This document shows positions 21,055-39,100 of a stretch of 64,000 nucleotides of DNA, in pieces (position 1 is the stretch's first letter; every line of letters begins with the position of its first letter). The notes under the pieces are model-generated. The model was not told the DNA's origin. It was given only the letters and a program-made list of their open reading frames with translations, and ran no database searches. This DNA comes from Nonomuraea montanisoli (GTDB lineage: Bacteria; Actinomycetota; Actinomycetes; Streptosporangiales; Streptosporangiaceae). The stretch spans positions 434,001-498,000 of the forward strand of contig NZ_JABWGN010000001.1 of NCBI RefSeq assembly GCF_013363975.1, read 5' to 3'. The position numbers and the translations under genes were made by a program.

Positions 21055-22500
21055 CTACCCCAGCTTGTCGGAGACGGCGTCGTCGTAGGCGCCTTCCGTC
21101 CAGTGCTCGTCGTCGATGTGCAGCCAGTACTGGCTCTGCCGGTCCGATTCCTGTTCGCCACCGCCGCCCCCGCCCATGTGCCCCACGGGGAAGCCCGACC
21201 CCAAGCCGCCGGCGCTGGTGGAGCCGCGGGCGGCGAGCTGCTGGGCGTTGGCCGCCGCCGAGCCGTCGCCGCGGCCCGTCGTGGAGACGCCGTCCGCCGT
21301 CGAGGCGCCGTTGGGGTTGTAGGTGCCGTTGGGGTTGTAGGCGCCGTACGGGGAGGAGGTGCTGTGCGGGTTGGTGGTGCTGTTCGGGCCGGTCGTGGTG
21401 GGGGAGGTGTAGCTGGTCGGGTTCCAGCCGGAGGTGGTCGCGTCCGGGACGTTGGGCCGCTGGTAGTCGGCGAGCTGCGTCGCCGTGGAACCGCCCGGCA
21501 TGGTGATGCCCTTGCTCGGGTCCGTGATGCCCTTGCTGGGGTCGGTGATGTGGGTTCCCGGCGTGGTGCCGCCCTGGGAGGGGTCCGTGACGCCGCCGCC
21601 GGGGGTGTTGACGCCGCCGGAGGTGTCGATGCCGCCGGGCGTGCCGACGCCGCCCGTGCCCGTGTCTCCGCCGGTGCCGCCGCCCGGCGTGGAGCCGCCG
21701 GGGCCGCCCGGCATGCCGGGGACGTTGACGTCGCCCGAGCCGCCGTCGCGCTTGCTCGGGTCGTCGAGGCCCAGGCCGCCGCCCGGGGTGTTGATGCCGT
21801 TGCCGTTGAGGCCGCCGCCGTTGAAGTCCCCGCCGTTGTACCCGGCGGGCATGACCCCGCCCTTCTTGAAGGGGTTGTCGAAGTTGACATCCTTGATCCC
21901 GTCGGCGCCCGGCGGCGTCGGGTCCTTGATGTCAGGCAGGTCCTTCTGGACGAAGTCCGGGAAGTGGGCGTACGCCTCGTACAGGTCCTTGTTGAAGGCG
22001 GCGAGGTGCTTGCCGGCCAACTCGTCCTGCGAACCCCACTCGATGCCCTGGTCGATGGTGTGGTAGAAGTCCGCGACGGAGTCGTTGAAGGTGAACTGGT
22101 TGTCGCTCCAGGCCATGGCCTTGTTCTGGACGAAGTCCGTGTGCTCGCGGACGCGGTCGGCGAGGTGCTGCATCGGCTTGGCCATGCCGTCCATGCCGCC
22201 GGAGAGGTTGACGATGGTGTCGTGGAGCTGCCGCAGCGCCTTCTGGGCGTCCACGGACGCCTTGCCCTTCCAGATCTTGGCCAGCTCGCCGCTGACCTCG
22301 TCGATCACGTCCAGCGTCTTCGCCAGCCGCTCCGCCGCGTCGGCGTACGCGGTGGCGGCGCCGTCGAAGGTCTCGGGCGCGAGCTTCAAGATGAAGTTCT
22401 TGACCTCGGCGACGCTCCTGCCGTCGTCGTCGACGCTGAAGTTGTCGCACTGGGTCTTGATCCAGTGTGTCGCCTTGGGGCTCTTCGTGGAATCAGCCAT
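21055..22500 (-). CDS. ESX substrate, WXG-type helical domain with Pro/Gly linker and C-terminal Trp motif
   Basis: This 481-residue protein is a likely type VII substrate. Residues 1-190 are alpha-helical with a WXG turn (ELAKIWKGKASVDAQKAL, near residue 75). Residues 200-330 are Gly/Pro/Thr-rich with DPSKGIT-like repeats, then a TQLADYQRPNVPDATTSGW segment and a Ser/Thr/Asn linker. The C-terminus has GHMGGGGGGEQESDRQSQYW then LHIDDEHW. The YQ and terminal Trp/acid motifs recur in the proteins at 27157-28398 and 28404-29876. It is the second gene after the small protein at 22507-22899 (6-bp gap). Confidence 0.75.
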   Translation of the reverse strand: MADSTKSPKATHWIKTQCDNFSVDDDGRSVAEVKNFILKLAPETFDGAATAYADAAERLAKTLDVIDEVSGELAKIWKGKASVDAQKALRQLHDTIVNLSGGMDGMAKPMQHLADRVREHTDFVQNKAMAWSDNQFTFNDSVADFYHTIDQGIEWGSQDELAGKHLAAFNKDLYEAYAHFPDFVQKDLPDIKDPTPPGADGIKDVNFDNPFKKGGVMPAGYNGGDFNGGGLNGNGINTPGGGLGLDDPSKRDGGSGDVNVPGMPGGPGGSTPGGGTGGDTGTGGVGTPGGIDTSGGVNTPGGGVTDPSQGGTTPGTHITDPSKGITDPSKGITMPGGSTATQLADYQRPNVPDATTSGWNPTSYTSPTTTGPNSTTNPHSTSSPYGAYNPNGTYNPNGASTADGVSTTGRGDGSAAANAQQLAARGSTSAGGLGSGFPVGHMGGGGGGEQESDRQSQYWLHIDDEHWTEGAYDDAVSDKLG

Positions 22501-22506
22501 GTGCGA

Positions 22507-22899
22507 TCACGTGTCCAATGAGATCTGCTGGTTGGCCTTGTCGTAGATCCCGCCGCCGACCAGGATGAGGTCGATGGCGATGCGGAGCTTCTCGTTCACC
22601 TGCGTGTAGATGTCGGTGAGCTGCTCCTGGCCCTTCTGCGCCGTATCGAGGAAGACCTTGCCGCCGTCCCAGCGCTTGACCTGCTTGAACTCGTAGCGCA
22701 GCGATGACAGGTCGGCCTTGGCCTGCACGTCCGACACGGAGCCGGGCTTCATACCGGTCAGCGCGGTGAGTTCGGCGGTGAGCCGGTCGGCGAGACCCTG
22801 GAACTTGGTCTTGGGATCCTCGGGATGCTCGACACCGTCGCGGTCGGCATCAAGTCCGGGCCACTTCTGGCCGCAATGCCGGTGATCCTTGGCAGGCAT
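22507..22899 (-). CDS. small ESX-associated protein (WXG100-like partner)
   Basis: This 130-residue protein has GGGAGG upstream of ATG 22899. An early Cys/His-containing segment (MPAKDHRHCGQKW) precedes a long helical region with LRYEFKQVKRWDGGKVFLDT, where WDG may be the WXG turn, then a second helix. It is co-transcribed with the longer substrate at 21055-22500 and probably pairs with it, as PE pairs with PPE proteins, but that is inference. It is divergent from eccB, with which it shares a 128-bp promoter region. Confidence 0.65.
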   Translation of the reverse strand: MPAKDHRHCGQKWPGLDADRDGVEHPEDPKTKFQGLADRLTAELTALTGMKPGSVSDVQAKADLSSLRYEFKQVKRWDGGKVFLDTAQKGQEQLTDIYTQVNEKLRIAIDLILVGGGIYDKANQQISLDT

Positions 22900-23027
22900 G
22901 ACACCCTCCCCACTGGCTCTTGATCCGCAACTTTACTCGCATGGCTATCGTGCCGTACAGAAGTTGACATATCCCCCATGCCGCTCAGCCGTAACATTAC
23001 GCGGGAGCCGGACCGGAACGGAGTGGC

Positions 23028-24452
23028 ATGCAGACCCGCAAGGATCTCTACCAGGCGCATCGGTTCATGACCCAGCGCCTCGGCATGGCCCTGTTGCAGG
23101 GCGAGCCTGACCTGCCCGAATCACCCATGCGCCGGCACAACGTCGCGACGTTCGCCGGTGTGCTCATCGGAATCCTCATCGCGGCGGGCTTCGGCATCTA
23201 CGGCATGCTGAAGCCGGGCGGGGCCACCAAGCTCACCGACCCCGGGCAGCTCCTCGTCGAGGAGGAGACCGGCGCGACCTATGTCTACAGCGAGCAGGAG
23301 AGCCGGCTGCTGCCGGTCGCCAACTACGTCTCGGCGCGCCTGCTGCTGGACAGCGACCAGGTCAAGGTGCGCAACGTGTCGTCGGAGTCGCTGGCGGGCT
23401 TCTCGCGCGGGCCGATGGTGGGCATCGCGGGGGCGCCGAACTCGCTGCCCAAGCCGCAGCGGATGGTCAAGACGCCGTGGTCGGCCTGCGTGACCGAGGG
23501 CCAGGACGCCGCGGGGACCCGCCGGTCGTACGTGACGCTGGTCGGCGGCACCGAGGTCGGCGGCGTGTCCCCCGGCGCCGCCGACGCGCTGCTCGTGAAC
23601 GACGGCGGGAAGAACTGGGTGCTGTGGGCCAACCAGCGGATGGCGGTCAACAACGTCGACCGGCTCACCGACCAGGCCCCGCGCCGGGTGCCCCTCTCGT
23701 GGATCAACTCCATCCCCGAGGGCAACAGGTTCGCCGCGCCCACGATCACCGGACGCGGCAGGCGGCTCCCCGGCACGTCCTTCCGGGTCGGGCAGGTCCT
23801 GAAGGTGGACGCGCTGGCGGGCAGCCCGGCCCGCTGGTACGTGCTGCTCTCGGACGGCCTCGCGCCCATCACCCAGACCCAGGCGACCCTCCTGATCCAG
23901 GACCCCGCCAGCCAGGTCGCATACGGCCGCAACCGCGTGCGGGAGATCCCGATCGACGCGGCGAGCGCCAACGCCACCAAGCAGTCCGCCCAGAACATCA
24001 GGGGCGGCGGCATGCCGGAGACCATGCCGCGCTTCCAGGCGCCGGCGACGTCGGCCCCGCTGTGCATGGTGTACGCCGACCTGCTCAAGGGCTCGGTCAA
24101 GGGCCGGCTGACGGTCGGCAGCACGGTGCAGATCCGGGCGCCGAAGTCGACCGGCAGCTCGGACAAGTTCGACCAGGTGGTGCTGCCGCCGGGTGGCGCC
24201 GCCGTGGCCGGCCTGCTGCCGGGCGAGGGTCAGCTCCCGTCGGTCACCCAGTTCTACCTGATCAGCGACCAGGGCAAGAAGTTCCGGCTGGTGACGCCCG
24301 ACGTCGTGACGAAACTGGGTTACAGCGCCGCGGACGTGGCACCCCTGCCGCCCCTCCTGCTGCGGCTGATCCCGGACGGGCCGGCACTGGATCCCGCCGC
24401 GGCCCTCACCCCGATGGCCGACACGGCGGGGCTGCGCTCCTCGGGGTCGTGA
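23028..24452 (+). CDS. eccB: type VII secretion membrane protein EccB
   Basis: This 474-residue core component of the ESX complex starts at ATG 23028 with GGAGTGG upstream. The N-terminus MQTRKDLYQAHRFMTQRLGMALLQGEPD is diagnostic for EccB. A single membrane helix follows (FAGVLIGILIAAGFGIYGML, about residues 44-63), then a large extracytoplasmic domain of repeated beta modules with LLVEEETGATYVY near its start. Conserved Cys residues flank the core (near 154 and 348). EccB anchors the channel to the periplasmic side. Usual length is 450-520, so it is complete. Confidence 0.95.
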   Translation: MQTRKDLYQAHRFMTQRLGMALLQGEPDLPESPMRRHNVATFAGVLIGILIAAGFGIYGMLKPGGATKLTDPGQLLVEEETGATYVYSEQESRLLPVANYVSARLLLDSDQVKVRNVSSESLAGFSRGPMVGIAGAPNSLPKPQRMVKTPWSACVTEGQDAAGTRRSYVTLVGGTEVGGVSPGAADALLVNDGGKNWVLWANQRMAVNNVDRLTDQAPRRVPLSWINSIPEGNRFAAPTITGRGRRLPGTSFRVGQVLKVDALAGSPARWYVLLSDGLAPITQTQATLLIQDPASQVAYGRNRVREIPIDAASANATKQSAQNIRGGGMPETMPRFQAPATSAPLCMVYADLLKGSVKGRLTVGSTVQIRAPKSTGSSDKFDQVVLPPGGAAVAGLLPGEGQLPSVTQFYLISDQGKKFRLVTPDVVTKLGYSAADVAPLPPLLLRLIPDGPALDPAAALTPMADTAGLRSSGS

Positions 24453-24466
24453 ACTGCGCATTTCAT

Positions 24467-24533
24467 GGACGGTAAATACTGGTAAACGGTAGTATCAGGG
24501 GGTTTAGTGTTCCTTTAGTGGTTTGGGGGGCAT
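24467..24533 (+). promoter_or_regulatory. probable promoter upstream of the 24534 gene
   Basis: An AT-rich stretch after eccB contains two GGTAAA copies and TAGTAT (24490-24495) as a candidate -10 element. GGTTTGGGGGG near 24521-24531 can serve as ribosome site. It suggests a separate transcript for the two downstream genes. Confidence 0.4.
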
Positions 24534-24878
24534 ATGGGGGACGCTGCCAATGGGTACGACGTCATACCGAAGAATCTGACCAAGGCCGTGCAGTCCTGTG
24601 CGAACCAGATGCAGCCCGTCAAGGACTGCATCGCCGCCTTCGGGCCCGCGAGGCTCACCAAGAGCGACTTCTCCCAAGCCCCGCAGGCTGACGAGCTGGC
24701 CGCCTCCTACGTCGACGGCACACAGGAGATGAACTTCAACGACAAGCGGTACGAGTCCGTCGTCGACTACCTGAACGACCTGCACGACGCGCTGCAGTGG
24801 CTGTCCGACTCCCTCGACGCGTCGGCGTACAACTACAAGGTCGCAGAGGCGGCCAGCCAGGGCAAGGCGACACCATGA
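24534..24878 (+). CDS. small ESX-associated helical protein
   Basis: This 114-residue protein has predicted helices throughout and no membrane segment or signal peptide. Two Cys occur early (SCANQMQPVKDC). Its size and place, upstream of and overlapping a WXG-LysM gene by 4 nt, fit a partner or chaperone that pairs with that product for export. I recognise no named family. A WXG turn is not obvious; LQWLSDSLDA occupies a similar place near the C-terminus. Confidence 0.6.
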   Translation: MGDAANGYDVIPKNLTKAVQSCANQMQPVKDCIAAFGPARLTKSDFSQAPQADELAASYVDGTQEMNFNDKRYESVVDYLNDLHDALQWLSDSLDASAYNYKVAEAASQGKATP

Positions 24879-26335
24879 CCGAAGGCCACATCAACCCGCT
24901 GCAGTGGAACTGGACCAGGTGGCCGTTCGACTTCGACCTCGGCTCGGTCCTCAACCCCGAGCCGCTGATCGCCACGATCAAGGCGATGTGGTACTCCATC
25001 CCCTCGTTGGTCGGCGGCGACGACGCCGAGGGGCGGCTGCGGCACGCGGCCGACGCGCATGAGCTCATGGCCGCGAAGCTCGACAAGATCTTCGACGTCC
25101 TCGACACCCGGACCCAGGGCCAGAGCGACGGCTACATGGACCGGATCATCAAGGAGTGGAAGGGCAAGGCCGCCGACGAGTTCCGCAAGGTCTGGGGCGA
25201 GGTCGTCAAGCACGAGAACCGCCAGGCGGTCGCCACCAGCGCGACCGGCATCGCGAAGATCCTGCGGGCCGTGGCCGACTCCTCGGCGATGACCAAGACA
25301 GCCCTGATCGAGCTGCTCAAGGCCGCGGCCATCTGGGCCGGCGTCTTCATGGCCCTCAGGTGGATCGCGCGCACGTGGGGCGGCGTCATCGCCGCCCAGA
25401 TGGCCACCTACGCCGCGTACCTGCGCACCACCCGCCTGGTCGGCATGGCCCTCCAGGTGCTGATCAGGTTCCTGTCGATGCTGCGCACCTGCGCGCTGGC
25501 GCTGCGCAACCTGCCCGTCGTGGGCCGGCTCCTCCTGCGCATGCCGGGAGCGGCCAAGCTGCGCTCGCTGAAGGCCGCGGCCGCGATGTCCAGGGTCGAG
25601 GTGGAGCTCGCGAAGTTCACCAAGTACGCGGGCTACGCCGAGAAGGCCGGAAAGACGAGCTTCTCCAGCTTCGCGAAGACCTCCGGCTGGGTCTACACCG
25701 GCGTCATCGGCTCCCAGATGCTCTCCCAGGGCATGCAGGGCAACAGCATCTTCAACCTCGACCCGCTGACCTTCGCCCAGGCCGCGCGCATCACCACGGG
25801 CGCCACGCTGGCCGCCACCTTCGCGCCCCTCTCGGGCCTCAGCACCAAGGGCCTCGCCAGCGGCGGCACCGCCGGGTCCTTCACGGCGCCCCTGACCAAG
25901 TCGGGGCAGGCCGTGGTCGAGTCCGGCGAGGCGTTCGGCGGCTTCGTCGCGCTGCGCAACCCGGCGTACGAGGCGCTCAAGAAGAAGCTGCCGACGATCG
26001 GCGGCCGGGGCAACGGGCACAAGACGTTCTACCAGGCCCTTCCGACGGCGGTCTTCCGCGTGTGGCGCCCCCTGCACACCACGGAGAAGCCCGAGGAACT
26101 GCCGCAGTGGCAGCAGCCGAGCACCGGCGAGCAGACGTTGAAGGAACCGCCGCGGGTGCAGACGGCGAAGGTCGGCTACTGGCCGGTCAACGGCGACCTG
26201 GAGACCATCGCGCAGAAGGTGTACGGCGATGCGAACCGCTGGCGCGAGATCTACGACGCCAACAGGGACGCCATCGGGCCGGACCCGCGGAACCTGCGGC
26301 CGGGCCAGATCCTGCGCATCCCGCTGGACGACTGA
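24875..26335 (+). CDS. ESX substrate: WXG-type domain plus C-terminal LysM
   Basis: This 486-residue protein starts at ATG 24875 in an ATGA overlap. Residues 1-120 form a helical WXG domain (IKEWKGKAADEFRKVWGE near 90-107). Hydrophobic helices follow around 140-180 and 205-240 (AAIWAGVFMALRWIA), then a flexible Ala/Gly region. The C-terminal 55 residues are a LysM domain (DLETIAQKVYGDANRWREIY and RNLRPGQILRIP). LysM binds peptidoglycan, so the protein may be anchored in the wall after export. The convergent terminator at 26341-26377 follows it. Confidence 0.75.
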   Translation: MTEGHINPLQWNWTRWPFDFDLGSVLNPEPLIATIKAMWYSIPSLVGGDDAEGRLRHAADAHELMAAKLDKIFDVLDTRTQGQSDGYMDRIIKEWKGKAADEFRKVWGEVVKHENRQAVATSATGIAKILRAVADSSAMTKTALIELLKAAAIWAGVFMALRWIARTWGGVIAAQMATYAAYLRTTRLVGMALQVLIRFLSMLRTCALALRNLPVVGRLLLRMPGAAKLRSLKAAAAMSRVEVELAKFTKYAGYAEKAGKTSFSSFAKTSGWVYTGVIGSQMLSQGMQGNSIFNLDPLTFAQAARITTGATLAATFAPLSGLSTKGLASGGTAGSFTAPLTKSGQAVVESGEAFGGFVALRNPAYEALKKKLPTIGGRGNGHKTFYQALPTAVFRVWRPLHTTEKPEELPQWQQPSTGEQTLKEPPRVQTAKVGYWPVNGDLETIAQKVYGDANRWREIYDANRDAIGPDPRNLRPGQILRIPLDD

Positions 26336-26340
26336 GGCAC

Positions 26341-26377
26341 GCCGGGGCGGCCGGAGGACACCCCCGGCCGCCCCGGC
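26341..26377. terminator. bidirectional terminator, 14-bp perfect stem
   Basis: GCCGGGGCGGCCGG (26341-26354) pairs perfectly with CCGGCCGCCCCGGC (26364-26377) across a 9-nt loop. It lies between convergent genes. Confidence 0.8.
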
Positions 26378-26394
26378 GCCCGCGAGCCGAAGTC

Positions 26395-27156
26395 CTAGAT
26401 CTTCATGGTCTTGCTCGGGTCGTCCATCTTCTGGCTGAGGCCGAGGCTCTTGTCGTACTGGAGCGCGGTGCCGGAGAACGGCGGCATGCCGGTGCCGTTC
26501 TTCAGGGAGCTCATCTCCGTCGGCAGGCCCGTCTTCATCATCGGGAAGAGCTTGCCGGTCATCTCGGCCTGCTGGTTGGCCATGTAGAGAACGCCGCCGA
26601 GGGAGGCGAGGACCATGAGCTGCTTCTTCGCGGTGCCCTTGGCCACGCCGGTCGTCGTGGCGCCCTGGACGGCGGACTCGCCCTCCGCGATGACCGCGCC
26701 GGCCGGGTGCACCAGGCTCATGATCCGCTTGCGGATACCGAAGATCAACATGCCCGTCGCGACCACGCCGCACAGCAGCACGACGTAGCCGAATATCTTC
26801 TCGGCGGCCTTCACCCCGTCACCGTTGAGGTTGCGCAGCTTGCCCAGGTCCTCGGCGCCCTTCCGGAACGAGTCGTAGACGCCTTCGAACGCCTCCCAGG
26901 CGGAGCCCTCCCACTTGCCCTCGTCCTGGAGGCGTTTCTTGAAGGCGGCCATATCCTCCATGAGCTCGTCGAGCTCGCCGATCAGGCCCTGCTCCCCCGT
27001 GGTCTTCCACAGCTGGGTCGTCTGCCCCATCCCGCTGACGTGGCCGTACAACGTGCCCATGATGCCCACCACGTACCAGGGCCACTTGCCGCCGATGAGG
27101 CCCGCGGCCGCCGTCGCCGTGGCGATGGCGGCGGCCATGATTCTCTCGTCGGCCAT
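26395..27156 (-). CDS. ESX-locus membrane protein with WXG-like helical domain
   Basis: This 253-residue protein is the last gene of the six-gene minus-strand cluster; its ATG directly follows the TAA of the previous gene. A short hydrophobic N-terminus (AAAIATATAAAGLIGG) precedes a helical domain containing DEGKWEGSAWEAFEGVYDSF, whose WEG turn fits the WXG100 fold. Two membrane helices follow (FGYVVLLCGVVATGMLIFGI and QLMVLASLGGVLYMA). It may be a membrane-bound partner or immunity-like factor for the cluster's products. I do not recognise a named family. Confidence 0.6.
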   Translation of the reverse strand: MADERIMAAAIATATAAAGLIGGKWPWYVVGIMGTLYGHVSGMGQTTQLWKTTGEQGLIGELDELMEDMAAFKKRLQDEGKWEGSAWEAFEGVYDSFRKGAEDLGKLRNLNGDGVKAAEKIFGYVVLLCGVVATGMLIFGIRKRIMSLVHPAGAVIAEGESAVQGATTTGVAKGTAKKQLMVLASLGGVLYMANQQAEMTGKLFPMMKTGLPTEMSSLKNGTGMPPFSGTALQYDKSLGLSQKMDDPSKTMKI

Positions 27157-28398
27157 TTAGGTGTCCACCCCGATCGTGGTGGGCGCCGTGGGATCGTCGC
27201 CGCCCCAGACGCTCTCCTCCGCGCGGAGCCCGTACTTGTCGTCGCTGTCGCCGGACTGGTCCTGGCTGTGCGGCGGGCTCATGGGCATCATCGGCGCCAT
27301 CGGCATGCCACTGCCCGTCAGACCTGCCGTCGCGGAGCGCAGGCCGGCCTGCAGGGCGGCCGCGTTAGCTCCTCCGCCGTTGAACGTGCCACCGCTGGTG
27401 CCCGGACTGGTGGAGGTCTGGACCGGGTTCACGGCCCTCGCGACGCTGTTCGGGTCGGCGTTGAGGGCGCTCATGTCGGGCGTCCTCACCTGGGGCGCCT
27501 GGTAGTCGGAGAGCTCCGTGCCCGTCGGGACCTTGGTATTGATGCCGGACATGTCGGGCATCCGCTGGCCGTTGAGCGCCGAGTTGATGTCGGGCACCTT
27601 GGTGTCGACCCCGCCCGGACCGTTCGGCAGGTCGGTGCTCGGCATCTTCGGAAGGTCCGTGCTGGGCATCTTCGGCAGGTCGGTGCTGGGCATCTTCGGG
27701 ATGTTCGTCTTCGGCGAGTCCGGGATCCCGTCGCCGTTCAGATCGACGTCGGGGATGCCGTCGCCGTTCAGGTCCTTGTCCGGGATCCCGTCGCCGTTGA
27801 CGTCCACGTCGGGGATGCCGTCGCCGTTCAGATCGACGTCGGGGATCCCGTCGCCGTTGAGATCCTTGTCCGGGATCCCGTCGCCGTTGACGTCCACGTC
27901 GGGGATGCCGTCGCCGTTGAGGTCGGGCAGCCCCTTGCCGCCGAGGTCGGGCAGCCCTCCCGGGCCGGGGAGGTTCTTCAGGCCGCTCATGTCGCCGAGG
28001 CCGCCCAGGTTCCCCAGGCCGTTGTTGATCTGCTGCATGGTGTCGCTGCCGGCGCCGGTGTAGTTGGCGTCGGAGTCGTAGAGCGCCCGTTTCCAGCTGT
28101 CCAGGGACTCCTGGGCGAGCTTGCCCGCGTCGTTGTGGGTCGTGATCGCCTTCTCGTGCACGGTGTTGACGCCCATGCCCATCAGGGAGAAGTGCGGCCA
28201 GGGCACGCCCAGGCCGCCGTTCTTGCCGTCCAGGCTCGACAGCGTGTCCTTCTGCTGGTCGAGCCCCTTGCCGGCGCTCGCGAGCTTCCCCTCGGTGAAC
28301 GAGACGCGCGACACCGCCCCGGCCGTCAGGCCGTTGAGAGCGCCGTTCGTGCTGAGGGCGCCGAACGCGTCGTTCGATCCGTTCGCCGGGTTCGCCAT
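27157..28398 (-). CDS. ESX substrate with NGDGIPD calcium-loop-like repeats
   Basis: This 413-residue protein has a helical N-terminal module (residues 1-135, with WKRALYDSDANYTGAGSD). Seven 10-residue repeats containing NGDGIPD follow (residues about 158-227), resembling the DxNxDGxxD calcium loops of thrombospondin type 3 and dockerin domains. After them come a PKMPSTDL repeat, an ELSDYQAPQVRTPD segment and a C-terminus with KYGLRAEESVWGGDD. The YQ and Trp/acid ends are shared with the paralogues at 21055 and 28404. The WXG turn itself is weak or absent. It would be an exported protein that stiffens on calcium binding, if the loops function. Confidence 0.7.
   Translation of the reverse strand: MANPANGSNDAFGALSTNGALNGLTAGAVSRVSFTEGKLASAGKGLDQQKDTLSSLDGKNGGLGVPWPHFSLMGMGVNTVHEKAITTHNDAGKLAQESLDSWKRALYDSDANYTGAGSDTMQQINNGLGNLGGLGDMSGLKNLPGPGGLPDLGGKGLPDLNGDGIPDVDVNGDGIPDKDLNGDGIPDVDLNGDGIPDVDVNGDGIPDKDLNGDGIPDVDLNGDGIPDSPKTNIPKMPSTDLPKMPSTDLPKMPSTDLPNGPGGVDTKVPDINSALNGQRMPDMSGINTKVPTGTELSDYQAPQVRTPDMSALNADPNSVARAVNPVQTSTSPGTSGGTFNGGGANAAALQAGLRSATAGLTGSGMPMAPMMPMSPPHSQDQSGDSDDKYGLRAEESVWGGDDPTAPTTIGVDT
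27718..27925 (-). repeat. 30-bp repeats with 90-bp higher order
   Basis: Seven 30-bp units encode NGDGIPD plus a variable triplet (VDV, KDL, VDL). The three unit types recur in the same order, giving a 90-bp higher-order period. Confidence 0.8.
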
Positions 28399-28403
28399 GT
28401 CGC

Positions 28404-29876
28404 CTACACCTGCTCCTGTCCTCCGAGGACCCCGCCGGGCAAGCCATGCACCCCAGCGACGTCCCAGTCCTGCGCGAGGTAGTAGTTCCGCGGCAGCTCC
28501 TCGCCGTCCTGACCGCCCGCGCCGCCGCCGAGGAGCGGCGCGACGGGCATGCCGGTCGAGCCGCTGGTCGCGGACCCGCGCAACGAGCCGGCCGGGAGCA
28601 CCTCTCCCGCCACCGAGCCCGCGCCGCCGTGCGGGTTGCCCAGCACCGACGGCACGTACGGCGTGCCGCCCGTGGGGGTGACCGTGTTCAGGGGCCCGAC
28701 CGTCGTGGTGGGCGTGGTGAACGGGTTGGAGTACGTCGTGGTCGTCGGCGACCAGCCGGTGGTGGTGGGCGTGGTCAGCGTGTTGGTCGGCTGGTAGCTC
28801 TCCATCTGGGTCTGGCGTGACGGGGTGTCGTCACGGCCGAGGACCGGCGGGGTGGTGCCGTCCCGGCTGCCGGAGGTGGAGCCGGGGTCGTGCGTGCCGG
28901 GGGTCTGCCCGTCCGGGCCGCCCGGGGTCTGGCCGTTCGGGCCGCCGGGGTTCTGCCCGTCGGTGGAGCCGTCGCCGGTGCCCGTCCCCGTGCCGCCGTC
29001 GGAGCCGTCCTTGCCACCCGTGCCGCCCGTGCCGTCGGAGCCGCCTGTGTGGCCGGTGCCACCGGTTCCCCCGGTGCCGCCGTGGTCGCCGGTCGAGCCG
29101 CCGTGGCCGCCGGAGCCACCCGTGTGGCCGGTGCCGCCGGTGCCGCCCGAGCCGCCCGTGTGGCCGGTGCCGCCGGTCCCGGTGGAGCCGCCGGTCCCGT
29201 CGTAGCCGGAGCCGCCGCCCGAACCGCCGTTGCCGCCGCCGTCGATGCCGCCGACGCTCGTCGGGTACTTGGGGGTGGCGTACGAGCCCGTGCCGCCGGG
29301 GACCGCCACGGCGGGCAGCTCGTAGGAGACGTCGTGCGGCACCTGGAGGGTGTACAGGTCGACGATCTTCTTGTTGAGGTCCCGCATGGCCTGCTGGGCC
29401 TCGCGGTCCTCGGCCGCCTTCTTGGCCGCCGCCTCGGCCGCGGTCTTGGTCTCGGCGTCGCCGTACGTGCCGCCGCCGCCGTTCTCCTCCGTGGCCTTGA
29501 TGCCCTCGACCTTGGAGATGGTCTCGGGGATGTAGCCGGCGTACTGGCGCAGCGCCGAGCCCATCATCTCCAGCTTGGTGGCCAGCTCGCCGCCGGTGGC
29601 GTGCATCATCTGGATGGCGTGCTTGGCCTTGGTGGCGTCGGCGCCCTTCCAGACCTGGAGAATCTTGCCGGCGTGCTCCTCCAGCGTCTTCATGCTGCTC
29701 TCGACGGCGCTGGCCGCCTTCTCGTACGCGAAGCCCGCGTCCTCGATCTGCGACGGCTGCGTCTTGTTCAGCAGTTGCAGGATCTCGTCCTTGGACGCGT
29801 TGACCGTGCCGCCCTCGGGCATCTTGTCGAAGGACAGGATGACGACGACCTGCCGGCCCGTCTTGCGCTCGGCCAT
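28404..29876 (-). CDS. ESX substrate, WXG-type domain with Gly/Thr linker and C-terminal Trp/acid motif
   Basis: This 490-residue protein starts at ATG 29876, overlapping the previous stop (TGATG). Residues 1-190 are helical with the WXG turn GKILQVWKGADATKAKHA near residue 75. Residues 200-320 are Gly/Thr/His-rich (GGTGHTGGSGG repeats) and a Pro/Gly/Asp linker follows. The segment TQMESYQPTNTLTTPTTTGW and the C-terminus GMPVAPLLGGGAGGQDGEEL then NYYLAQDWD match the layout of the genes at 21055 and 27157. The very end (about 20 residues) is a longer Gly/Val tail than in the paralogues. Confidence 0.75.
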   Translation of the reverse strand: MAERKTGRQVVVILSFDKMPEGGTVNASKDEILQLLNKTQPSQIEDAGFAYEKAASAVESSMKTLEEHAGKILQVWKGADATKAKHAIQMMHATGGELATKLEMMGSALRQYAGYIPETISKVEGIKATEENGGGGTYGDAETKTAAEAAAKKAAEDREAQQAMRDLNKKIVDLYTLQVPHDVSYELPAVAVPGGTGSYATPKYPTSVGGIDGGGNGGSGGGSGYDGTGGSTGTGGTGHTGGSGGTGGTGHTGGSGGHGGSTGDHGGTGGTGGTGHTGGSDGTGGTGGKDGSDGGTGTGTGDGSTDGQNPGGPNGQTPGGPDGQTPGTHDPGSTSGSRDGTTPPVLGRDDTPSRQTQMESYQPTNTLTTPTTTGWSPTTTTYSNPFTTPTTTVGPLNTVTPTGGTPYVPSVLGNPHGGAGSVAGEVLPAGSLRGSATSGSTGMPVAPLLGGGAGGQDGEELPRNYYLAQDWDVAGVHGLPGGVLGGQEQV

Positions 29877-30280
29877 CACTTACCGCCTTCGGTGGCGACG
29901 TCGGCGGCGCCATGGTTGGCGGCGTTCGCCTCGATGGCCGCGACGACGTCCTTGAGGGCCTGGATGTACTGCTTGTACACGTCGGCGAACTTCTGCCCGC
30001 CGCTGTTCTTGCCGACCGTGGACGCGAAGGCACTGGCGTCGTGCCAGGTGCCGATCTGCGCCTCGGTGAGCTGGCAGTGGTCGAGGATGGCATTGACCGA
30101 GCCGGTCGCGCCCCCCTTGGCCGAGCCGGAGCCCTCCAGGGCGCTGATGGCGGTCTTCAGCTCCTCGGCGATCTTCCGCATCGCGGAGGGCGAGTGCTCC
30201 CGCGCCCCGCCGCCATCGAAGAGATCAGGATCGATGTACAGGGGATCGGTACCCCCGTCAATCGCGTCCTTCTGGGTCAT
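29876..30280 (-). CDS. small ESX-associated helical protein
   Basis: This 134-residue protein starts at ATG 30280 with a G-rich ribosome site. A short acidic N-terminus (DPLYIDPDLFDGG) precedes two helices; IGTWHDASAFASTVGKN sits near the turn. No signal peptide or membrane helix is visible. It overlaps the start of the larger substrate gene at 28404, which is the usual arrangement for a small partner followed by its PPE-like companion. I infer a pairing role. Confidence 0.6.
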   Translation of the reverse strand: MTQKDAIDGGTDPLYIDPDLFDGGGAREHSPSAMRKIAEELKTAISALEGSGSAKGGATGSVNAILDHCQLTEAQIGTWHDASAFASTVGKNSGGQKFADVYKQYIQALKDVVAAIEANAANHGAADVATEGGK

Positions 30281-30357: not shown

Positions 30358-30675
30358 TCAGTCAGACCAGATCGCGATGTTGCGCTTCTCGGCGTTCTTG
30401 TAGTTGCCGTTGGCGATCTGGACCACCTGGGCCGCGTTGAAGAGCTGCTCGCCCATGCGGACCTCGTGCTCGTTCCACTCGCGCTTCTTGTCCTCGAACC
30501 AGGTGCGGGCGCCGCCGACCCAGATCTCGTGGAGCTCGTTGTGGAGGTCCTGGTAGAGGTCGTCCGTGGCCTTGTCGAGCTCGGTGATGACTTTCTTCAG
30601 GTCCTCGTACGCGAGGTCCATGTTGCCGAAGTGGATCTTTACGCGGTCGTCGAGGTAGTCGTTCGGGTTCGGCAT
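30358..30675 (-). CDS. WXG100-family protein
   Basis: This 105-residue protein has GGAGG 6 nt before ATG 30675. It forms a helix-turn-helix hairpin: helix 1 ends at LHNELHEIWVGGARTWFEDK, where WVG is the WXG turn. Length and charge fit the ESAT-6/CFP-10 class. The gene is 26 bp after another WXG100 gene, so the two likely form the secreted heterodimer that leads this six-gene cluster. The C-terminus ends NIAIWSD. Confidence 0.82.
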   Translation of the reverse strand: MPNPNDYLDDRVKIHFGNMDLAYEDLKKVITELDKATDDLYQDLHNELHEIWVGGARTWFEDKKREWNEHEVRMGEQLFNAAQVVQIANGNYKNAEKRNIAIWSD

Positions 30676-30701
30676 GATGATCCTCCGTGTCGTTCAGGCG
30701 C

Positions 30702-31073
30702 TTAGCGGGCAGCCGGCGTGTTCGCGTTGATGAGCGAGTCGATGCCGCCGCTCTGGCCGGTCTGCATCAGGCCGTGGACGAGGTCCATGTCGTGCTCGGC
30801 GGCGTTGGCGTACACACCCGCACCGATGTTGAGCTTGTCGTAGATGCCCTCGAGAATCTTGATGACCTGGTTGAACTCGATGTCCCACTGGTCGAGCGCC
30901 CGGCCGAAAGCCCTGGCGGCGTTGGACTCCCAGTTGGCCATGATGTAGGCCTTGATGTCCTGGACACGTCGGCGCTGGCCTTCGATGTACTGGGCAGTGG
31001 TCTGGCAGTAGCCCGCCGCCTTCTTGAGGGACGTCGGGCTGGTTGCCGCCAGAGCGGCGTCGATGTCCGCCAT
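30702..31073 (-). CDS. WXG100-family protein, first of the substrate cluster
   Basis: This 123-residue helical hairpin protein has GGAGG upstream of ATG 31073. The turn is YIMANWESNAARAFGRAL, with WES in place of WXG, a common variant. The C-terminal tail includes DMDLVHGLMQTGQ. It is the promoter-proximal gene of the six-gene cluster and lies beside the related gene at 30358. The upstream region is AT-rich, suggesting strong expression. Confidence 0.8.
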   Translation of the reverse strand: MADIDAALAATSPTSLKKAAGYCQTTAQYIEGQRRRVQDIKAYIMANWESNAARAFGRALDQWDIEFNQVIKILEGIYDKLNIGAGVYANAAEHDMDLVHGLMQTGQSGGIDSLINANTPAAR

Positions 31074-33190
<2,117 letters not shown>

Positions 33191-33202: not shown

Positions 33203-33925
33203 ATGGACCTCTACGCCAGTGGTACGACCCTCTACACCTCCGGGATCGCCTCGAGCGTGGCCGCGGCGGGCATAGCCACCAACCCCATCCTCAAGATGAT
33301 CGCCCGGTACCTCGCCACTTCCTGGGGCACCCTGTTCTCCAGTCCGAGCGACATCTGGGACGAGGCCGTCAACTGCGGGACCATGGCCGTCGACGTGGAG
33401 GTCGCCGGCGGGAGTCTCAAGACCGTCATCCACGGCGTCAGCAAGGACGACTGGGAGAAGATGGGCCGCGAGGAGGCCAACACGACGGCCTCGAAGTTCG
33501 ACGCGGACGCCACCGAGGTCAAGGAGATCTTCGACACCCTGCAGGACATCTTGAAATCGCTGGCCGCCTGGTCGATGGGCGGTGCCGTCGGGTGCGTCAC
33601 GACCGGGGGCATCATGCTGTTGGTGGCCTGGGCCAACAGCGCGGGGAAGATCCTGGGGCCGGCCGCGGTGGCCTCGGAGATCACAACCGTGGCCTCGGGC
33701 AACGCGCTGCTGGCGGCGGTGAGGGGCGCCGTGGGCAAGAACGTGAAGGTCTACATCACGGCGGCGACCGTGGCCATGGCACTCAAGGCCGTTCTGGCGC
33801 AGCACTCGATGTCGGCGCTGCGCGCCGCCGCGCATCCCGTCGACAAGGTCCCCGAGTTCGAGCAGGTGTACATCCCGGACCTGCCCACGACGGACAAGAA
33901 GGGCAAGCCGCTCGGCGACGCCTGA
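33203..33925 (+). CDS. ESX-locus membrane protein, helical
   Basis: This 240-residue protein begins 12 bp after the preceding gene and is probably co-transcribed. The N-terminal helical part has DDWEKMGREEANTTASKFDA. A central pair of hydrophobic helices follows (MGGAVGCVTTGGIMLLVAW, then ILGPAAVASEITTVASGNALLAAV) and a short polar C-terminus. The layout (helical bundle plus two membrane helices) resembles the proteins at 26395 and 49992. Function is unknown; it may be a membrane partner of the upstream product. Confidence 0.6.
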   Translation: MDLYASGTTLYTSGIASSVAAAGIATNPILKMIARYLATSWGTLFSSPSDIWDEAVNCGTMAVDVEVAGGSLKTVIHGVSKDDWEKMGREEANTTASKFDADATEVKEIFDTLQDILKSLAAWSMGGAVGCVTTGGIMLLVAWANSAGKILGPAAVASEITTVASGNALLAAVRGAVGKNVKVYITAATVAMALKAVLAQHSMSALRAAAHPVDKVPEFEQVYIPDLPTTDKKGKPLGDA

Positions 33926-33997: not shown

Positions 33998-34441
33998 TCA
34001 GAGGTCGAGGCGGCGGCGGATGCGGTCGAGCTCGCCCATGACGTCCTCGAACGTCCGGTTGTACGCCGCCTCCGCCTCCTTGATCTTGTTGAGCGCCTCG
34101 TCGGGATTGTTGACGAACTTCATCGGGTTGTCGTCCTCGCCGAACGCCTCCGACATGGCGCCGCTGATCTGGGTCTGCAGGTCGGCGGCCGCGTCCCGCA
34201 GGACCACCTTGATCAGGTCGGCCAGCTCTCCCGAGGACAGCCGCATCGCCTTGGGGTGGAGATGGAGATCACGCAGTCCCTCGCTGCCGTACTCGACCGT
34301 CACCAGGCCGTCCTCGTCCTGCCCGCGACCGACGATCGTGGACATGGACGTCTGGAGCTCCTCGATCCGGGCGAACTGCTCGTCAGCCCCCTTGAGCAGC
34401 TTGTCGATGTCGATGTTCGCGAAGTCTCCGAATTCCTGCAT
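33998..34441 (-). CDS. YbaB/EbfC-family protein of the ESX locus
   Basis: This 147-residue protein has the YbaB fold: an N-terminal helix (ADEQFARIEELQTSMSTIVG), a central beta strand block with DGLVTVEYGSEGLRDLHLHP, and a C-terminal helix (LADLIKVVLRDAAADLQTQI). In other ESX loci YbaB-like proteins such as EspL act as chaperone or stability factors for secreted Esp proteins rather than as DNA-binding proteins. It follows eccD by 44 bp and is probably its operon partner. A second member lies at 51262. Confidence 0.8.
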   Translation of the reverse strand: MQEFGDFANIDIDKLLKGADEQFARIEELQTSMSTIVGRGQDEDGLVTVEYGSEGLRDLHLHPKAMRLSSGELADLIKVVLRDAAADLQTQISGAMSEAFGEDDNPMKFVNNPDEALNKIKEAEAAYNRTFEDVMGELDRIRRRLDL

Positions 34442-34485: not shown

Positions 34486-36039
34486 TCAGCCAGACAATCC
34501 GCGCACCCACGAATAGACCTCAAGAACCCCGAGCGCGAGCGGGAAGAGCTCCACGATGAGCACCACGTCCAGGATGTCGCCCGCGCGCCCCCAGAACGGC
34601 GACGGCTTGCCCGAGGGCAGGAACAGGCCGATCCCGACGGCCATCAGGCCCAGCCACAGCGCGCCGATCGCCACGACCACGGCCCCGATCACGCCCGAGC
34701 CGGAGCCGAGCGTGAAGGCGAGCACGCCGAAGGCCGCCAGCCCCGTCATGATGAGCCACAGCCGCTGCCGGACCCCGCGGAAGATCCGCGCCCGCATGAT
34801 GAGCGTCAGCCCGAGCGTGCCGATCATCAGGTCGGCGATCCAGCCGTCGTCGGTGGACAGCAGCGCCATCGTGACCAGCGACGTCAGCGCGATGGCGATG
34901 ATCATCCCGGTCGCGTAGCGCTGGGCGATCGCGGTCCGCTCCTGGATGCCCGCGCTGTCGAGCCGCTGGTTGTCGCTGCGCAGCTCCTCGGCCGTCGTGG
35001 GCATGGCCGGCAGAGGCACCTTGGCCAGGCGGAACGACAATGTCGGCACGAGCGGGCTGAGCGCCAGCAGCACCGAGATCTCCACGGCGGCCACGCCCGC
35101 GGGCGGCGCGGCGAACACCATGATCACGGCCGCGCCGACGGCCCCGGCGGCCGAGGCGATGGACGTGCCGAGGAAGCCCGGCACGCCGTCCGAGATGAGC
35201 ACGCCGCCGATCGTCGCGACCAGCGCGGTGCAGGCGAACGCGGCCAGCGCGTGCGGCGCGCCGACGCTCGCCAGCACGCCCCCGCTCGCCGGGGCGAACA
35301 GCCCGGCCAGGAAGCCGTACGGCAGCGCGGCGTGACCGATGAGCGCGCCCGCGAGCGAGTCGCCGACCGCCCTGGACAGCACCGCGCCCGTCGCCAGCAG
35401 CACGACGGAGAGCACCCCGGCGACCACCGTGCCGACCAGCGCCGGCGCCCCCGAGGTCATGAGCGCGATCGCGCCGGCGACCAGCACGCCGAGGGCGCCG
35501 GTGGCGCCCGCGAGCCTGGTGTGCCGGTTGGTCCAGGGGCCGGCCGCGTTCTTCACGCCGGTCGCGACCACGTCGGCCACGTCGTCGAACAGCGCGGGCG
35601 GGAGGATCGCCTCCCGCGGGCGCAGGTAGAGCACCTCGCCGTCGAGGATGCCGAGCTCGCCGAGGCTCTGGCCGAGGTCGAGGGGGGCGCCGCCGAGCCG
35701 CTGGAGGGTCCAGCCGGGGGCCGCCGCCGCGTCGCCGCCCACCTCGTCGAGCGCGCGCAGCAGGTTCGGCAGCACGTGCGGGAGGGGGATGTCGGCGGGC
35801 AGCGCCAGGTCGGCCTTCTTCTTCGGCCCCACGATCGTCACGTGGCACAGCGGCGGCAGCGGCACGGGCACCTGCGCGAGCGCGCCCTGCCGGATCGGCC
35901 CCTGGAAGGGCCCCTGCGGCGGTCCCGGCAGATGCGGGGGCCCAGGTGGATACGGCGGCCCGGGTGGGCCGGGAGGCCCCGCCGGCGGGCCGTGCGGGAT
36001 CGGCCCCGATACGGCCGGTCCATGGACCATAGGTCCCAT
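34486..36039 (-). CDS. eccD: type VII secretion integral membrane protein EccD
   Basis: This 517-residue channel protein has a Pro/Gly-rich tail of about 55 residues (PPGPPGPPYPPGPPHLPGPP). A ubiquitin-like domain follows (VPLPPLCHVTIVGPKKKADLALP, residues about 58-130), then about eleven membrane helices to the C-terminus. Conserved EccD features include LRPREAILPPALFDDVADVV before the first helix. EccD forms the membrane vestibule around the pore. The start is at ATG 36039, and the gene is divergent from eccC. Confidence 0.93.
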   Translation of the reverse strand: MGPMVHGPAVSGPIPHGPPAGPPGPPGPPYPPGPPHLPGPPQGPFQGPIRQGALAQVPVPLPPLCHVTIVGPKKKADLALPADIPLPHVLPNLLRALDEVGGDAAAAPGWTLQRLGGAPLDLGQSLGELGILDGEVLYLRPREAILPPALFDDVADVVATGVKNAAGPWTNRHTRLAGATGALGVLVAGAIALMTSGAPALVGTVVAGVLSVVLLATGAVLSRAVGDSLAGALIGHAALPYGFLAGLFAPASGGVLASVGAPHALAAFACTALVATIGGVLISDGVPGFLGTSIASAAGAVGAAVIMVFAAPPAGVAAVEISVLLALSPLVPTLSFRLAKVPLPAMPTTAEELRSDNQRLDSAGIQERTAIAQRYATGMIIAIALTSLVTMALLSTDDGWIADLMIGTLGLTLIMRARIFRGVRQRLWLIMTGLAAFGVLAFTLGSGSGVIGAVVVAIGALWLGLMAVGIGLFLPSGKPSPFWGRAGDILDVVLIVELFPLALGVLEVYSWVRGLSG

Positions 36040-36138
36040 GTGTCGTCACTCCGTCCCACGAACGCCATGGACAACAGAGAACATACTGGGTCCCTTCTGG
36101 TAAGAAGGGCACCAACCGATACGGAGGACCGTCTCACG
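36040..36138. promoter_or_regulatory. eccD/eccC divergent promoter with small hairpin
   Basis: This 99-bp region separates the two core genes. CCCTTCT (36092-36098) and AGAAGGG (36103-36109) form a 7-bp hairpin in the leader of eccC. GGAGG (36123-36127) supports the GTG start at 36139. Confidence 0.5.
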
Positions 36139-39100
36139 GTGAGCATCGTCGTAGTAAGGCGTCCCGAGCGGCGCCCGAGCCCCAAACCACCCCGCGGAGA
36201 GATCCTGCTGGAGTCGCCGCCGGAGATCCCGGAGGTGCAGGGGCAGGGGTTCATGATCGTGCTCACGTACCTGCCCATGCTGGCGGGCGGCGCGGCGATG
36301 GCGCTGATGTTCACGGCGGGCGGCAACTCCAACCCCATCATGTACGTGGCCAGCGGCATGTTCGCGGTGTCCATGGTCGGCATGACGATCGGCCAGATGG
36401 GCCGGCAGGCCGGCGAGCGCAGGTACCGGCTCAACGGCTCCCGCCGCGACTTCTTCCGTTACCTGTCGCAGGTGCGCTCCAAGGTCAGGCGGGCCGCCAA
36501 GCAGCAGCGCGAGGCGCTGGAGTGGAGCGGCCCCGAGCCCGACGCGCTGTGGTGGATCGCGATGGGCCCCCGCCTGTGGGAGCGCCGCCCCCGCGACGAC
36601 GACTTCAGCACGGTACGGCTCGGCACGGGCGTGCAGAAGCTGGCCATCCAGCTCATCCCGCCGGACTCCAAGCCCGTCGAGGACCTCGACGCCCTGTCGG
36701 CCGGCGCGCTGCGCAGGTTCGTGCGGGCGCACGCCACGGTGGCACGGCTGCCCGTGGCCGTCGCGCTCGGCTCGTTCGCCCGGATCAGGATCACCGGCGA
36801 CCCGGTGGCGGTGCGCGACATGGTGCGGGCCATGGTCGGCCAGATGGCGGTGTTCCACTCGCCGGACGACCTGCGCGTCATGGTGTGCGCCGACCAGGAG
36901 TGGATGGCCCACTGGGAGTGGATCAAGTGGCTGCCGCACGCGCTGCACCCCGACGAGATGGACGGCGCCGGCCAGGTCCGGCTCATGGCCGAGAACCTCG
37001 GCGAGCTGGACCGCCTCGTGGGCAACGAGCTGAAGGAGCGCGCCCGGTTCCGGCCCGGCTCGGCCGGTGACTCGTTGCCGTACCACGTGCTCATCGTGGA
37101 CGGCGGGCACGTGCCGCACGACTCGCAGCTCGGCACGGACGCCATCCAGGGCGTCACGGTGCTCGACCTGTCCGGCAACACCGGCGCGGTCGAGGAGAAG
37201 AGCACCCTGCGGCTGGACGTGCAGCCCGACGGGTTCCACATGGTCAAGATCGACCACACCGGCAAGGAGACCAAGACCCGCCTCGGCGACGCCGACCAGC
37301 TCGACTACCTGCGCGCCGAGGGCCTGGCCAGGCAGCTCGCCCCGCTGCGCGCCTCGGCCAACAACGCCGGCGAGCCGGAGGACGTGCTCGCGGCCAACAC
37401 CACGCTGACCGACCTGCTCGGCATCGGCGACCCTCTGCGCCTCGACACGGCGCTGAGCTGGCGGCCGCGAGCCGGCCGCAACCGGCTGCGCGTGCCCATC
37501 GGCCTCGGCGCCGACGGCCGCGTCGTCGAGCTGGACATCAAGGAGTCGGCGCAGGGCGGCATGGGCCCGCACGGCCTGGTCATCGGCGCCACCGGCTCCG
37601 GCAAGAGCGAGCTGCTGCGCACGCTGGTGCTCGGCCTGGCCGTCACCCACTCCTCCGAGATCCTCAACTTCGTCCTCGTCGACTTCAAGGGCGGCGCCAC
37701 GTTCCTCGGCCTGGAGTCGCTCTCCCACGTCTCCGCGGTCATCACCAACCTGGAGGACGAGCTCCCCCTGGTCGACCGTATGCACGACGCGCTGCACGGC
37801 GAGATGGTGCGCCGCCAGGAGCTGCTGCGGGCGGCCGGCAACTACGCCTCGCTGCGCGACTACGAGCGGGCCCGCGAGCAGGGCGCCGAGCTGGCGCCGC
37901 TGCCGACGCTGTTCGTGGTGCTGGACGAGTTCAGCGAGCTGCTGACGGCCAAGCCGGAGTTCATCGAGCTGTTCGTGATGATCGGCCGGCTCGGCCGCTC
38001 GCTCGGCGTACACCTGCTGCTCGCCTCGCAGCGGCTGGAGGAGGGCCGCCTGCGCGGCCTCGACACCCACCTGTCGTACCGCATCGGCCTGCGCACGTTC
38101 TCCGCGATGGAGAGCCGCGTCGTGCTGGGCGTGGCCGACGCCTACGAGCTGCCGCCGGCGCCCGGCAACGGCTTCCTCAAGTTCGACACGACCGGCATGA
38201 CCCGGTTCAAGGCCGCGTACGTGTCCGGGCCCTACCAGGCCGACCCCCGCCACGTCCCGGCCGACGCCGGCTCCGTGCTGCAGACCCAGATCGTCGAGTA
38301 CGGCCCCGGCCACGTGCCGATCCCCGTGGTCGAGCAGCCCGCGAAGGAGGTGGCGCCGGCCGAGGAGAAGGGGCCGCAGCGCAGCCTGCTCGACATCGTC
38401 GTGGAGCGGCTGGCCGATCAGGGCCCGGCCGCCCACCCGATCTGGCTGCCGCCGCTCGGCGAGCCGCCCACCCTCGCGCACCTGCTGCCGCCGCTGTCCG
38501 TCACCCCCGAGCTGGGCCTGTCCACGCCGGGCTGGGACGGCCGGGGCCGCCTGCACGCCGTCGTCGGCATCATCGACAAGCCGTTCGAGCAGCGGCGCGA
38601 CCCGTACTGGCTGGACCTGTCGGGCGCGGCGGGCCACGTCGGCGTCGCCGGCGGCACCCAGAGCGGCAAGAGCAACACGATCCGCACCCTGATCACCAGC
38701 ATGGCGCTCACCCACACGCCGCGCGAGGTGCAGTTCTACTGCCTCGACTTCGGCGGCGGCACGCTCGGCTCGCTGGAGGGACTCCCGCATGTCGGCGGCG
38801 TGGCCAGCCGCCTCGACGCCGAGCGGGTCCGCCGGACCGTCGCCGAGGTCTCCGGCCTGCTTCAGCGGCGCGAGCGCGACTTCACCGAGCGGGGCATCGA
38901 CTCGATGATCACCTACCGGCGGCAGGTCGCCGACGGCACCATCGAGGGCGACGGCTGGGGCGACGTGTTCCTGGTGGTCGACGGCTGGCTGACGATCCGC
39001 CAGGAGTTCGAGGGCCTGGAGGCCGTGATCACCGACCTGGCCGCCCGCGGCCTCGGCTACGGCATCCACGTGATCGCCTCCACCAACAAGTGGTCGGAGT

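What the first reader, a model, noticed from the sequence alone, without database searches (positions are those of the whole stretch)
21055..29876. Three paralogous substrates share ends but not linkers
The proteins at 21055, 27157 and 28404 share an N-terminal helical module, a YQ motif (LADYQ, LSDYQ, MESYQ) and a C-terminal Gly-rich segment followed by aromatic and acidic residues with Trp. Their middles are unrelated repeats. This looks like a conserved secretion or assembly signal at both ends with a freely evolving linker. The C-terminal Trp/acid motif could be a recognition tag.
Basis: seen in the sequence. Interest (0 to 1): 0.62.

Follow-up and report, generated by a model that had tools for sequence, protein, structure and literature searches.

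The report
EspB-like tail on three ESX proteins
Three large proteins encoded in a soil bacterium's type VII secretion locus end in the same short acidic tail, which also ends the secreted protein EspB of mycobacteria, so a tail known from one protein appears to be a widespread label on secretion-system substrates whose job can now be tested.

Summary
P1 (21055-22500), P2 (27157-28398) and P3 (28404-29879), all minus strand, lie in a T7SSa (ESX) locus of a Nonomuraea-genus genome. Their last ~50 residues are homologous: profiles built from the other families score the window tails at 24-35 bits, against at most 15 bits in 11,500 shuffled tails. The upstream YQ motif also recurs, more weakly.

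The N-terminal claim is half right. P1 and P3 have a WXG100 domain (PPE-like fold in the P1 model); P2 has a different, EspC-like hairpin.

In its own genome the tail occurs only on these three proteins. In 116 relatives it co-occurs with EccB (61/1/8/46), and 136 of 150 tails lie within 10 kb of EccB. It is also the C-terminus of EspB-family proteins (profile-profile score 42 versus 8.5±2.0, maximum 16.6, in 200 column shuffles).

Best reading: EspB-type substrates with the PE-like and PPE-like halves on separate genes, each large chain carrying the EspB tail. The tail most likely acts before or during export as a docking tag for co-secretion and is then trimmed by mycosin. Homology and ESX linkage are shown; the mechanism is inferred. 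New variant of a known kind.

The parts
21055..22500 (-). P1: WXG100/PPE-like N-domain (residues ~20-190), disordered Gly/Pro/Thr linker, T-x-L-x-x-YQ motif, C-terminal EspB-like tail
   Evidence: translation; PF06013 4.9e-8; AF2 and PDB comparison; tail profile E 4.8e-13
21058..21207 (-). P1 tail (last 50 codons)
   Evidence: cross-family profile scores; alignment A1
22507..22899 (-). Small helical partner gene directly upstream of P1 (g22507)
   Evidence: synteny in relatives, including copies away from the core locus:
27157..28398 (-). P2: EspC/PE-like hairpin, NGDGIPD-type repeat linker, T-x-L-x-x-YQ motif, C-terminal EspB-like tail
   Evidence: translation; PF10824 in 3 of 38 orthologues; AF2 hairpin; tail profile E 3.1e-12
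27160..27309 (-). P2 tail (last 50 codons)
   Evidence: cross-family profile scores
26395..27156 (-). WXG-like protein with hydrophobic segments, directly downstream of P2 (g26395), proposed P2 partner
   Evidence: present next to P2 in all 41 loci incl. the window; weak PF06013 0.0024
28404..29879 (-). P3: WXG100 N-domain, Gly-Thr-His repeat linker, T-x-M-x-x-YQ motif, C-terminal EspB-like tail
   Evidence: translation; PF06013 3.8e-6; tail profile E 1.4e-10
28407..28556 (-). P3 tail (last 50 codons)
   Evidence: cross-family profile scores
29876..30280 (-). Small helical partner gene directly upstream of P3 (g29876), related to g22507
   Evidence: synteny; both profiles hit the same ORFs
30358..31073 (-). 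Two WXG100 genes (30358-30675, 30702-31073), Esx-type pair
   Evidence: PF06013: 2.7e-5, 1.1e-11
23028..24452 (+). EccB
   Evidence: TIGR03919 8.5e-83
34486..36039 (-). EccD
   Evidence: PF19053 8e-91
35251..40119 (+). Open frame that contains EccC (FtsK/SpoIIIE ATPase); true start not determined, probably after 36039
   Evidence: PF01580 1.2e-90
33998..34441 (-). YbaB/EbfC-family gene, same family as the gene next to EspB (EspL position) in L142
   Evidence: PF02575: 8.8e-8 (window) and 2.9e-12 (L142)
54082..55248 (-). Mycosin-like subtilisin (candidate tail-trimming protease)
   Evidence: subtilisin-type motifs and C-terminal hydrophobic segment read in the translation; not tested against a profile library

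Best explanation
P1, P2 and P3 are EspB-type substrates of one T7SSa (ESX) system. In EspB a PE-like and a PPE-like half are fused and followed by a disordered linker and one C-terminal tail. Here the halves are on separate genes: P1 and P3 are WXG/PPE-like chains, each preceded by its own small helical partner, and P2 is an EspC/PE-like chain next to a WXG-like membrane protein. Each large chain keeps a disordered linker and its own copy of the EspB tail. The folded N-terminal pair is the export module recognised by EccC. The tail most likely works on the cytoplasmic side or in transit as a short docking peptide, read by a chaperone, another substrate or the machinery, so that the substrates leave together; it is then removed by mycosin, as part of the EspB C-terminal region is. 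Shown here: homology of the tails, their restriction to T7SSa genomes and loci, homology with the EspB tail, N-domain similarity, synteny. Inferred: export, pairing, docking role, trimming.
For: Tails of the three families are homologous beyond shuffles. Tail matches outside the three families are C-terminal and in T7SS loci in distant Actinomycetes. Own genome: only these three proteins. Co-occurrence with EccB 61/1/8/46 in relatives and 38/1/63/194 in the class; 136 of 150 tails within 10 kb of EccB. EspB-family proteins carry the tail. P1 N-domain resembles PPE and EspB-PPE structures. Partner genes syntenic. Low dN/dS of the tail in most P2 pairs. Literature: MycP1 processes the EspB C-terminal region and a protease-dead MycP1 leaves mainly full-length EspB in the supernatant (PMC5082899, PMC10140165); the conserved acidic C-terminus of PPE68 is needed for EspE but not EsxA secretion (PMC9765416).
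Against: No export, binding or cleavage was measured. In EspB the chaperone EspK binds the helical tip, not the tail (PMC9811218), and EspB secretion survives loss of mycosin activity. P3 tails are not clearly more constrained than its linker, and in the window clade the tails are diverging. The link to the PPE68 acidic stretch is an analogy; its sequence was not compared. Partner assignments rest on gene order. Sensitivity limits mean many ESX systems show no tail (63 of 101 EccB genomes in the class sample).
Confidence: 0.5

Rival explanations
1. The tail is an assembly or anchoring motif that works after export: tail-bearing subunits bind each other or a wall/membrane component outside the cell, and the Gly-rich linkers act as spacers.
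For: Several tail proteins per locus (usually three), long disordered linkers, and purifying selection on the tail. EspB assembles into rings after export.
Against: EspB rings form from the N-terminal region after C-terminal residues are removed (PMC9811218, PMC10140165), so in the best-studied bearer the tail is not part of the assembled form.
Confidence: 0.2
2. The tail is only a substrate-recognition element for mycosin (MycP): it recruits the protease, which cuts near the YQ motif, and has no role in targeting or co-secretion.
For: EspB is the one known MycP1 substrate (PMC5082899) and bears this tail. The shared YQ motif lies 105-140 residues from the C-terminus, roughly where EspB cutting is reported (residues 332 and 392 of 460, PMC10140165). 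A mycosin-like gene is in the window.
Against: No cut site is known here; mycosin is present in ESX systems in which no tail was found; the PPE68 tail effect is on co-secretion, and its surface processing was unchanged in a MycP1 active-site mutant (PMC9765416).
Confidence: 0.2
3. The similarity is chance or low-complexity convergence of Gly-rich, acidic C-termini, or inheritance from a common ancestor without function.
For: The tail starts with a low-complexity Gly/Met/Pro stretch, and P1 and P3 share a paralogous N-domain.
Against: Shuffled, reversed and column-shuffled controls do not reproduce the scores. P2 has a different N-domain but the same tail. The tail is retained across families of Actinomycetes and constrained in most P2 pairs.
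Confidence: 0.04

Closest known systems
EspB (ESX-1 substrate; Pfam PF18625 + PF21856, NCBIfam NF052471)
   Same: Helical PE/PPE-type N-domain, disordered Gly-rich linker, homologous C-terminal tail, YbaB-family (EspL-type) gene and mycosin in the locus
   Different: EspB fuses PE and PPE in one chain and was the only tail match in the mycobacterial-type genomes sampled; here the halves are on separate genes and three chains bear tails; no EspB domain model matches P1-P3
PE/PPE pairs, including PPE68
   Same: P1 N-domain aligns with PPE domains over their length; a small helical gene precedes each large one; PPE68 also has a conserved acidic C-terminus needed for secretion of another substrate (PMC9765416)
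   Different: Only one of 32 P1/P3-type proteins matches the Pfam PPE family; the small partners are not recognised as PE by Pfam
EspC/EspA-type ESX-1 pairs
   Same: P2 orthologues match EspC (PF10824) in 3 of 38 cases and carry YxxxD/E; the adjacent protein is WXG-like with hydrophobic segments
   Different: P2 adds a long repeat linker and the EspB-like tail; window P2 itself lacks the YxxxD/E and does not match EspC
LXG proteins with small partner proteins (T7SSb)
   Same: Helical N-module with small helical partner genes and a variable C-terminal part
   Different: T7SSa locus (EccB, EccC, EccD); no toxin domain recognised by Pfam in P1-P3; conserved C-terminal tail

Membership tests
EspB | Fused PE (PF18625) and PPE (PF21856) domains in one chain | tested here: not met
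   no match of P1, P2 or P3 to either model up to E 1
EspB | EspB-type C-terminal tail | tested here: met
   profile-profile score 42.1, probability 95%, versus maximum 16.6 in 200 column shuffles; tail profile hits EspB-family ORFs at 1.2e-8 to 1.7e-6
EspB | WxG and YxxxD/E on the same chain | tested here: not met
   WxG in P1/P3 orthologues without a YxxxD/E at a conserved position; YxxxD/E but no conserved WxG in P2 orthologues. Window P1 and P3 do hold single YxxxD/E matches
EspB | Cleavage by mycosin on export and ring assembly | not testable with these tools
   needs experiment
WXG100 / PPE-like fold (P1, P3) | WXG100 model match | tested here: met
   PF06013 33.6 and 27.5 bits, cut-off 27.3; 23 of 32 family members match
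WXG100 / PPE-like fold (P1, P3) | PPE-domain structure | tested here: inconclusive
   P1 model vs PPE15: Z 10.5, 150 residues, rmsd 2.9 A; the tool warns that Z under about 13 is not decisive for helical bundles
EspC (PF10824), for P2 | PF10824 match | tested here: inconclusive
   3 of 38 orthologues match, best 3e-6 and over the cut-off; window P2 does not
T7SSa substrate | Encoded with EccB, EccC, EccD and WXG100 genes | tested here: met
T7SSa substrate | Exported in an ESX-dependent way | not testable with these tools
   needs experiment

The most novel reading that the evidence does not exclude
Actinobacterial T7SSa has a second, C-terminal targeting signal besides the WxG/YxxxD-E signal: a ~50-residue tail, carried by EspB and by families of other substrates, that is read by a common ESX component or chaperone and groups unlike substrates for co-secretion. 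In the window clade, where P2 has lost YxxxD/E, the tail may carry more of the targeting.
Probability: 0.25. Interest if true: 0.75.

Novelty: new variant of a known kind. Interest (0 to 1): 0.55.

Why it matters
The C-terminal region of EspB has stayed structurally unresolved and its role open (PMC10140165). Finding its tail on several unlike substrates outside mycobacteria separates the tail from EspB's host-directed roles and points to a general part in T7SSa export or processing. It also gives a profile that lists candidate T7SSa substrates in actinobacteria, and non-mycobacterial species in which to test the tail.

Tried and rejected
The tail profile A1 against PDB sequences gave only two chance-level mannanase hits; solved EspB was reached through the intermediate L131. 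No Pfam or NCBIfam model of the tail was hit in P1-P3. The first alignment was too diverse for the collection scan; a P2-only tail alignment (A2) worked. Two class-level hits (L136, L137) are internal matches in ORFs with no ESX gene found in the 20 kb fetched and were set aside as chance. Low-complexity convergence was rejected by three kinds of decoys. YxxxD/E as a conserved signal in P1 and P3 was not supported, because positions vary between orthologues. A strict link between the tail and an adjacent YbaB gene was not supported: several tail loci show none. The literature searches showed no description of this shared tail in titles, abstracts or the passages read; subscription papers are mostly outside the library, so a prior description cannot be excluded.

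Full report
Setting. The window is contig 11, 434001-498000, of a 9.76 Mb genome. Genomes of the same genus in the collection carry contigs identical in length to named Nonomuraea records (for example G042 contig 28 and N. wenchangensis, both 252,516 bases), so the organism is taken to be a Nonomuraea. The locus is a T7SSa (ESX) system: EccB 23028-24452, EccD 34486-36039, EccC inside the frame 35251-40119, WXG100 genes 30358-30675 and 30702-31073, a YbaB-family gene 33998-34441 and a mycosin-like subtilisin 54082-55248.

The observation. The genes are tightly packed: 29876-30280, P3, P2 and 26395-27156 follow each other with gaps or overlaps of a few bases, and 22507-22899 precedes P1 by 6 bases. 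P1 and P3 carry WXG100 domains. P2 does not; its orthologues match the EspC family in 3 of 38 cases and carry a YxxxD/E at about residues 90-113 in 32 of 41 cases, but window P2 and its two nearest relatives lack it. AlphaFold2 gives P1 a mostly confident N-domain (residues ~20-190) that aligns with PPE domains (PPE15 Z 10.5, 150 residues, rmsd 2.9 A; EspB PPE part Z 8.4) and leaves linker and tail at low confidence, as expected for disorder. Z of this size is not decisive for helical bundles. P2 is modelled as a two-helix hairpin with low to moderate confidence.

The tail. Orthologues of the three proteins were collected from 40 relatives. Their C-termini share a pattern close to GMPxMPMGGxGxGxxxxERExxTxLxEDxDVWGGxxDxxxPxIG. 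To test this without circularity, a profile was built from each family with the window member left out and run on the other families and on 11,500 composition-preserving shuffles: window tails score 24-35 bits, the best shuffle 15.0. With the pooled profile, reversed ORFs reach 12.6 bits at most in 13,208, and all 120 domains of 20 bits or more in the relatives' loci end within 45 residues of a stop codon. The YQ motif is the core of a second, weaker shared motif, T-x-[LM]-x-x-[YF]-[QD]-P, about 105-140 residues before the C-terminus.

Linkage to T7SS. In its own genome the tail profile finds the three window proteins; the next match has E 0.9. Among 116 relatives, tail and EccB co-occur in 61, tail alone in 1 (a 63% complete genome), EccB alone in 8 (none in the same family), neither in 46 (Fisher 8e-23); 136 of 150 listed tails lie within 10 kb of EccB and 143 within 50 kb. 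In a class-wide sample of 296 genomes the table is 38/1/63/194 (Fisher 2e-19). Two of the class-level matches (L136, L137) are probably chance. Genomes are related to each other, so the Fisher values overstate the number of independent events. The search scores only part of its candidates, so tail counts are lower bounds. Tails outside the core locus still sit directly behind a small helical partner gene (L180, L183).

EspB. Four class-level hits (L130, L131, L139, L142) lie two genes from a mycosin-like gene. The tail-bearing ORFs of L130 and L131 match NF052471 (below its cut-off), and those of L130, L131 and L142 match PF21856 and PF18625 above cut-off. The ORF downstream of EspB in L142 is a YbaB-family protein, the position of EspL. 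L131 aligns with full-length solved EspB through its C-terminus. The alignment of these EspB tails against the tails of the Nonomuraea and related genomes scores 42.1 (probability 95%), against 8.5±2.0 (maximum 16.6) for 200 column shuffles. The tail is therefore taken to be homologous to the EspB tail. P1-P3 are not members of the EspB family, because the EspB PE and PPE domain models do not match them.

Gene pairs. In the relatives, P1- and P3-type genes are preceded by a small helical protein of the 22507/29876 family, and P2 lies next to a WXG-like protein with hydrophobic segments (26395 family). This resembles the pairing of PE with PPE genes. The picture is of an EspB whose halves are on separate genes, several times over, with a tail on each large chain.

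Constraint. Pairwise dN/dS on about 50 tail codons is 0.02-0.20 in P2 pairs outside the window clade and 0.16-0.58 in P1 pairs, while linkers show more indels and, in P1, ratios from 0.33 to 1.5. P3 shows no clear difference, and the window clade has higher tail values, 0.3-1.1. The numbers are noisy because the regions are short.

Mechanism. Known from the literature: MycP1 cuts the C-terminal region of EspB on export, and a protease-dead MycP1 still allows secretion, with mainly full-length EspB outside (PMC5082899, PMC10140165). EspK binds the helical tip of EspB, not the tail (PMC9811218). In PPE68, whose paralogues differ in the C-terminal domain but share an acidic C-terminal stretch, deleting the last 10 residues blocks secretion of EspE but not of EsxA (PMC9765416). 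A tail that is conserved, always with T7SSa, shared by unlike substrates and perhaps trimmed on export fits best with a docking tag used before or during export for joint secretion. This step is inference; the rivals are assembly outside the cell and pure mycosin docking.

Novelty. No Pfam or NCBIfam model of the tail was hit in P1-P3, and no paper found in the open library described it as a shared module in the parts seen. Papers outside that library were not checked.

Noticed in passing
31364-33190 (+) with 33203-33925 (+): A 608-aa protein with a long Gly/Thr/Asp-rich N-terminal part and, at its very C-terminus, a domain homologous to the P2 N-domain (P2 profile E 5.6e-7 in the window, 2.4e-14 in the L059 orthologue, residues 541-627 of 629). 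The next gene is a WXG-like protein with hydrophobic segments. This looks like a reverse-domain T7SSa substrate candidate; PMC11217815 states that it was not known whether T7SSa secretes such proteins.
   Followed up: partly
27157-28398 (-), around residues 105-115 of P2: Window P2 and its orthologues in the two nearest relatives lack the YxxxD/E export motif that 32 of 41 P2-type proteins keep.
   Followed up: partly
24534-24878 and 24869-26335 (+): Small protein with a C-terminal YxxxE, followed by a WXG-like protein with hydrophobic segments and a LysM-like C-terminus (NF008399 3.6e-8, below its cut-off); found in only 8-9 of 40 relatives' loci.
   Followed up: partly
48491-49981 (+): WXG100 protein (G000 C11:482845-483093) whose C-terminal part reads like a lytic transglycosylase; the true start is probably inside the listed ORF.
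   Followed up: no
42493-48084 (-): 1863-aa protein with a WXG100_2 N-domain (2.3e-10) and internal repeats around a HFNHQHRL-like motif; possibly a large T7SS effector.
   Followed up: no
27718-27925: P2 linker repeats of the NGDGIPDVDL type (90-base period, 94% matches), matched by FG-GAP/Ca-binding-like models; orthologues have DLPxx-type pentapeptide repeats instead.
   Followed up: partly
L117, L118, L121, L126, L128, L134: In one group of the same family the tail is followed by about 60 more residues ending in a basic stretch of the type GNRRGR; EspB tails are also followed by a short basic stretch.
   Followed up: no
L180 (G031 C1:4748100-4768000): A P1-type tail protein with its small partner lies 333 kb from the only EccB found in that genome, without other ESX genes recognised in the 20 kb fetched.
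   Followed up: partly
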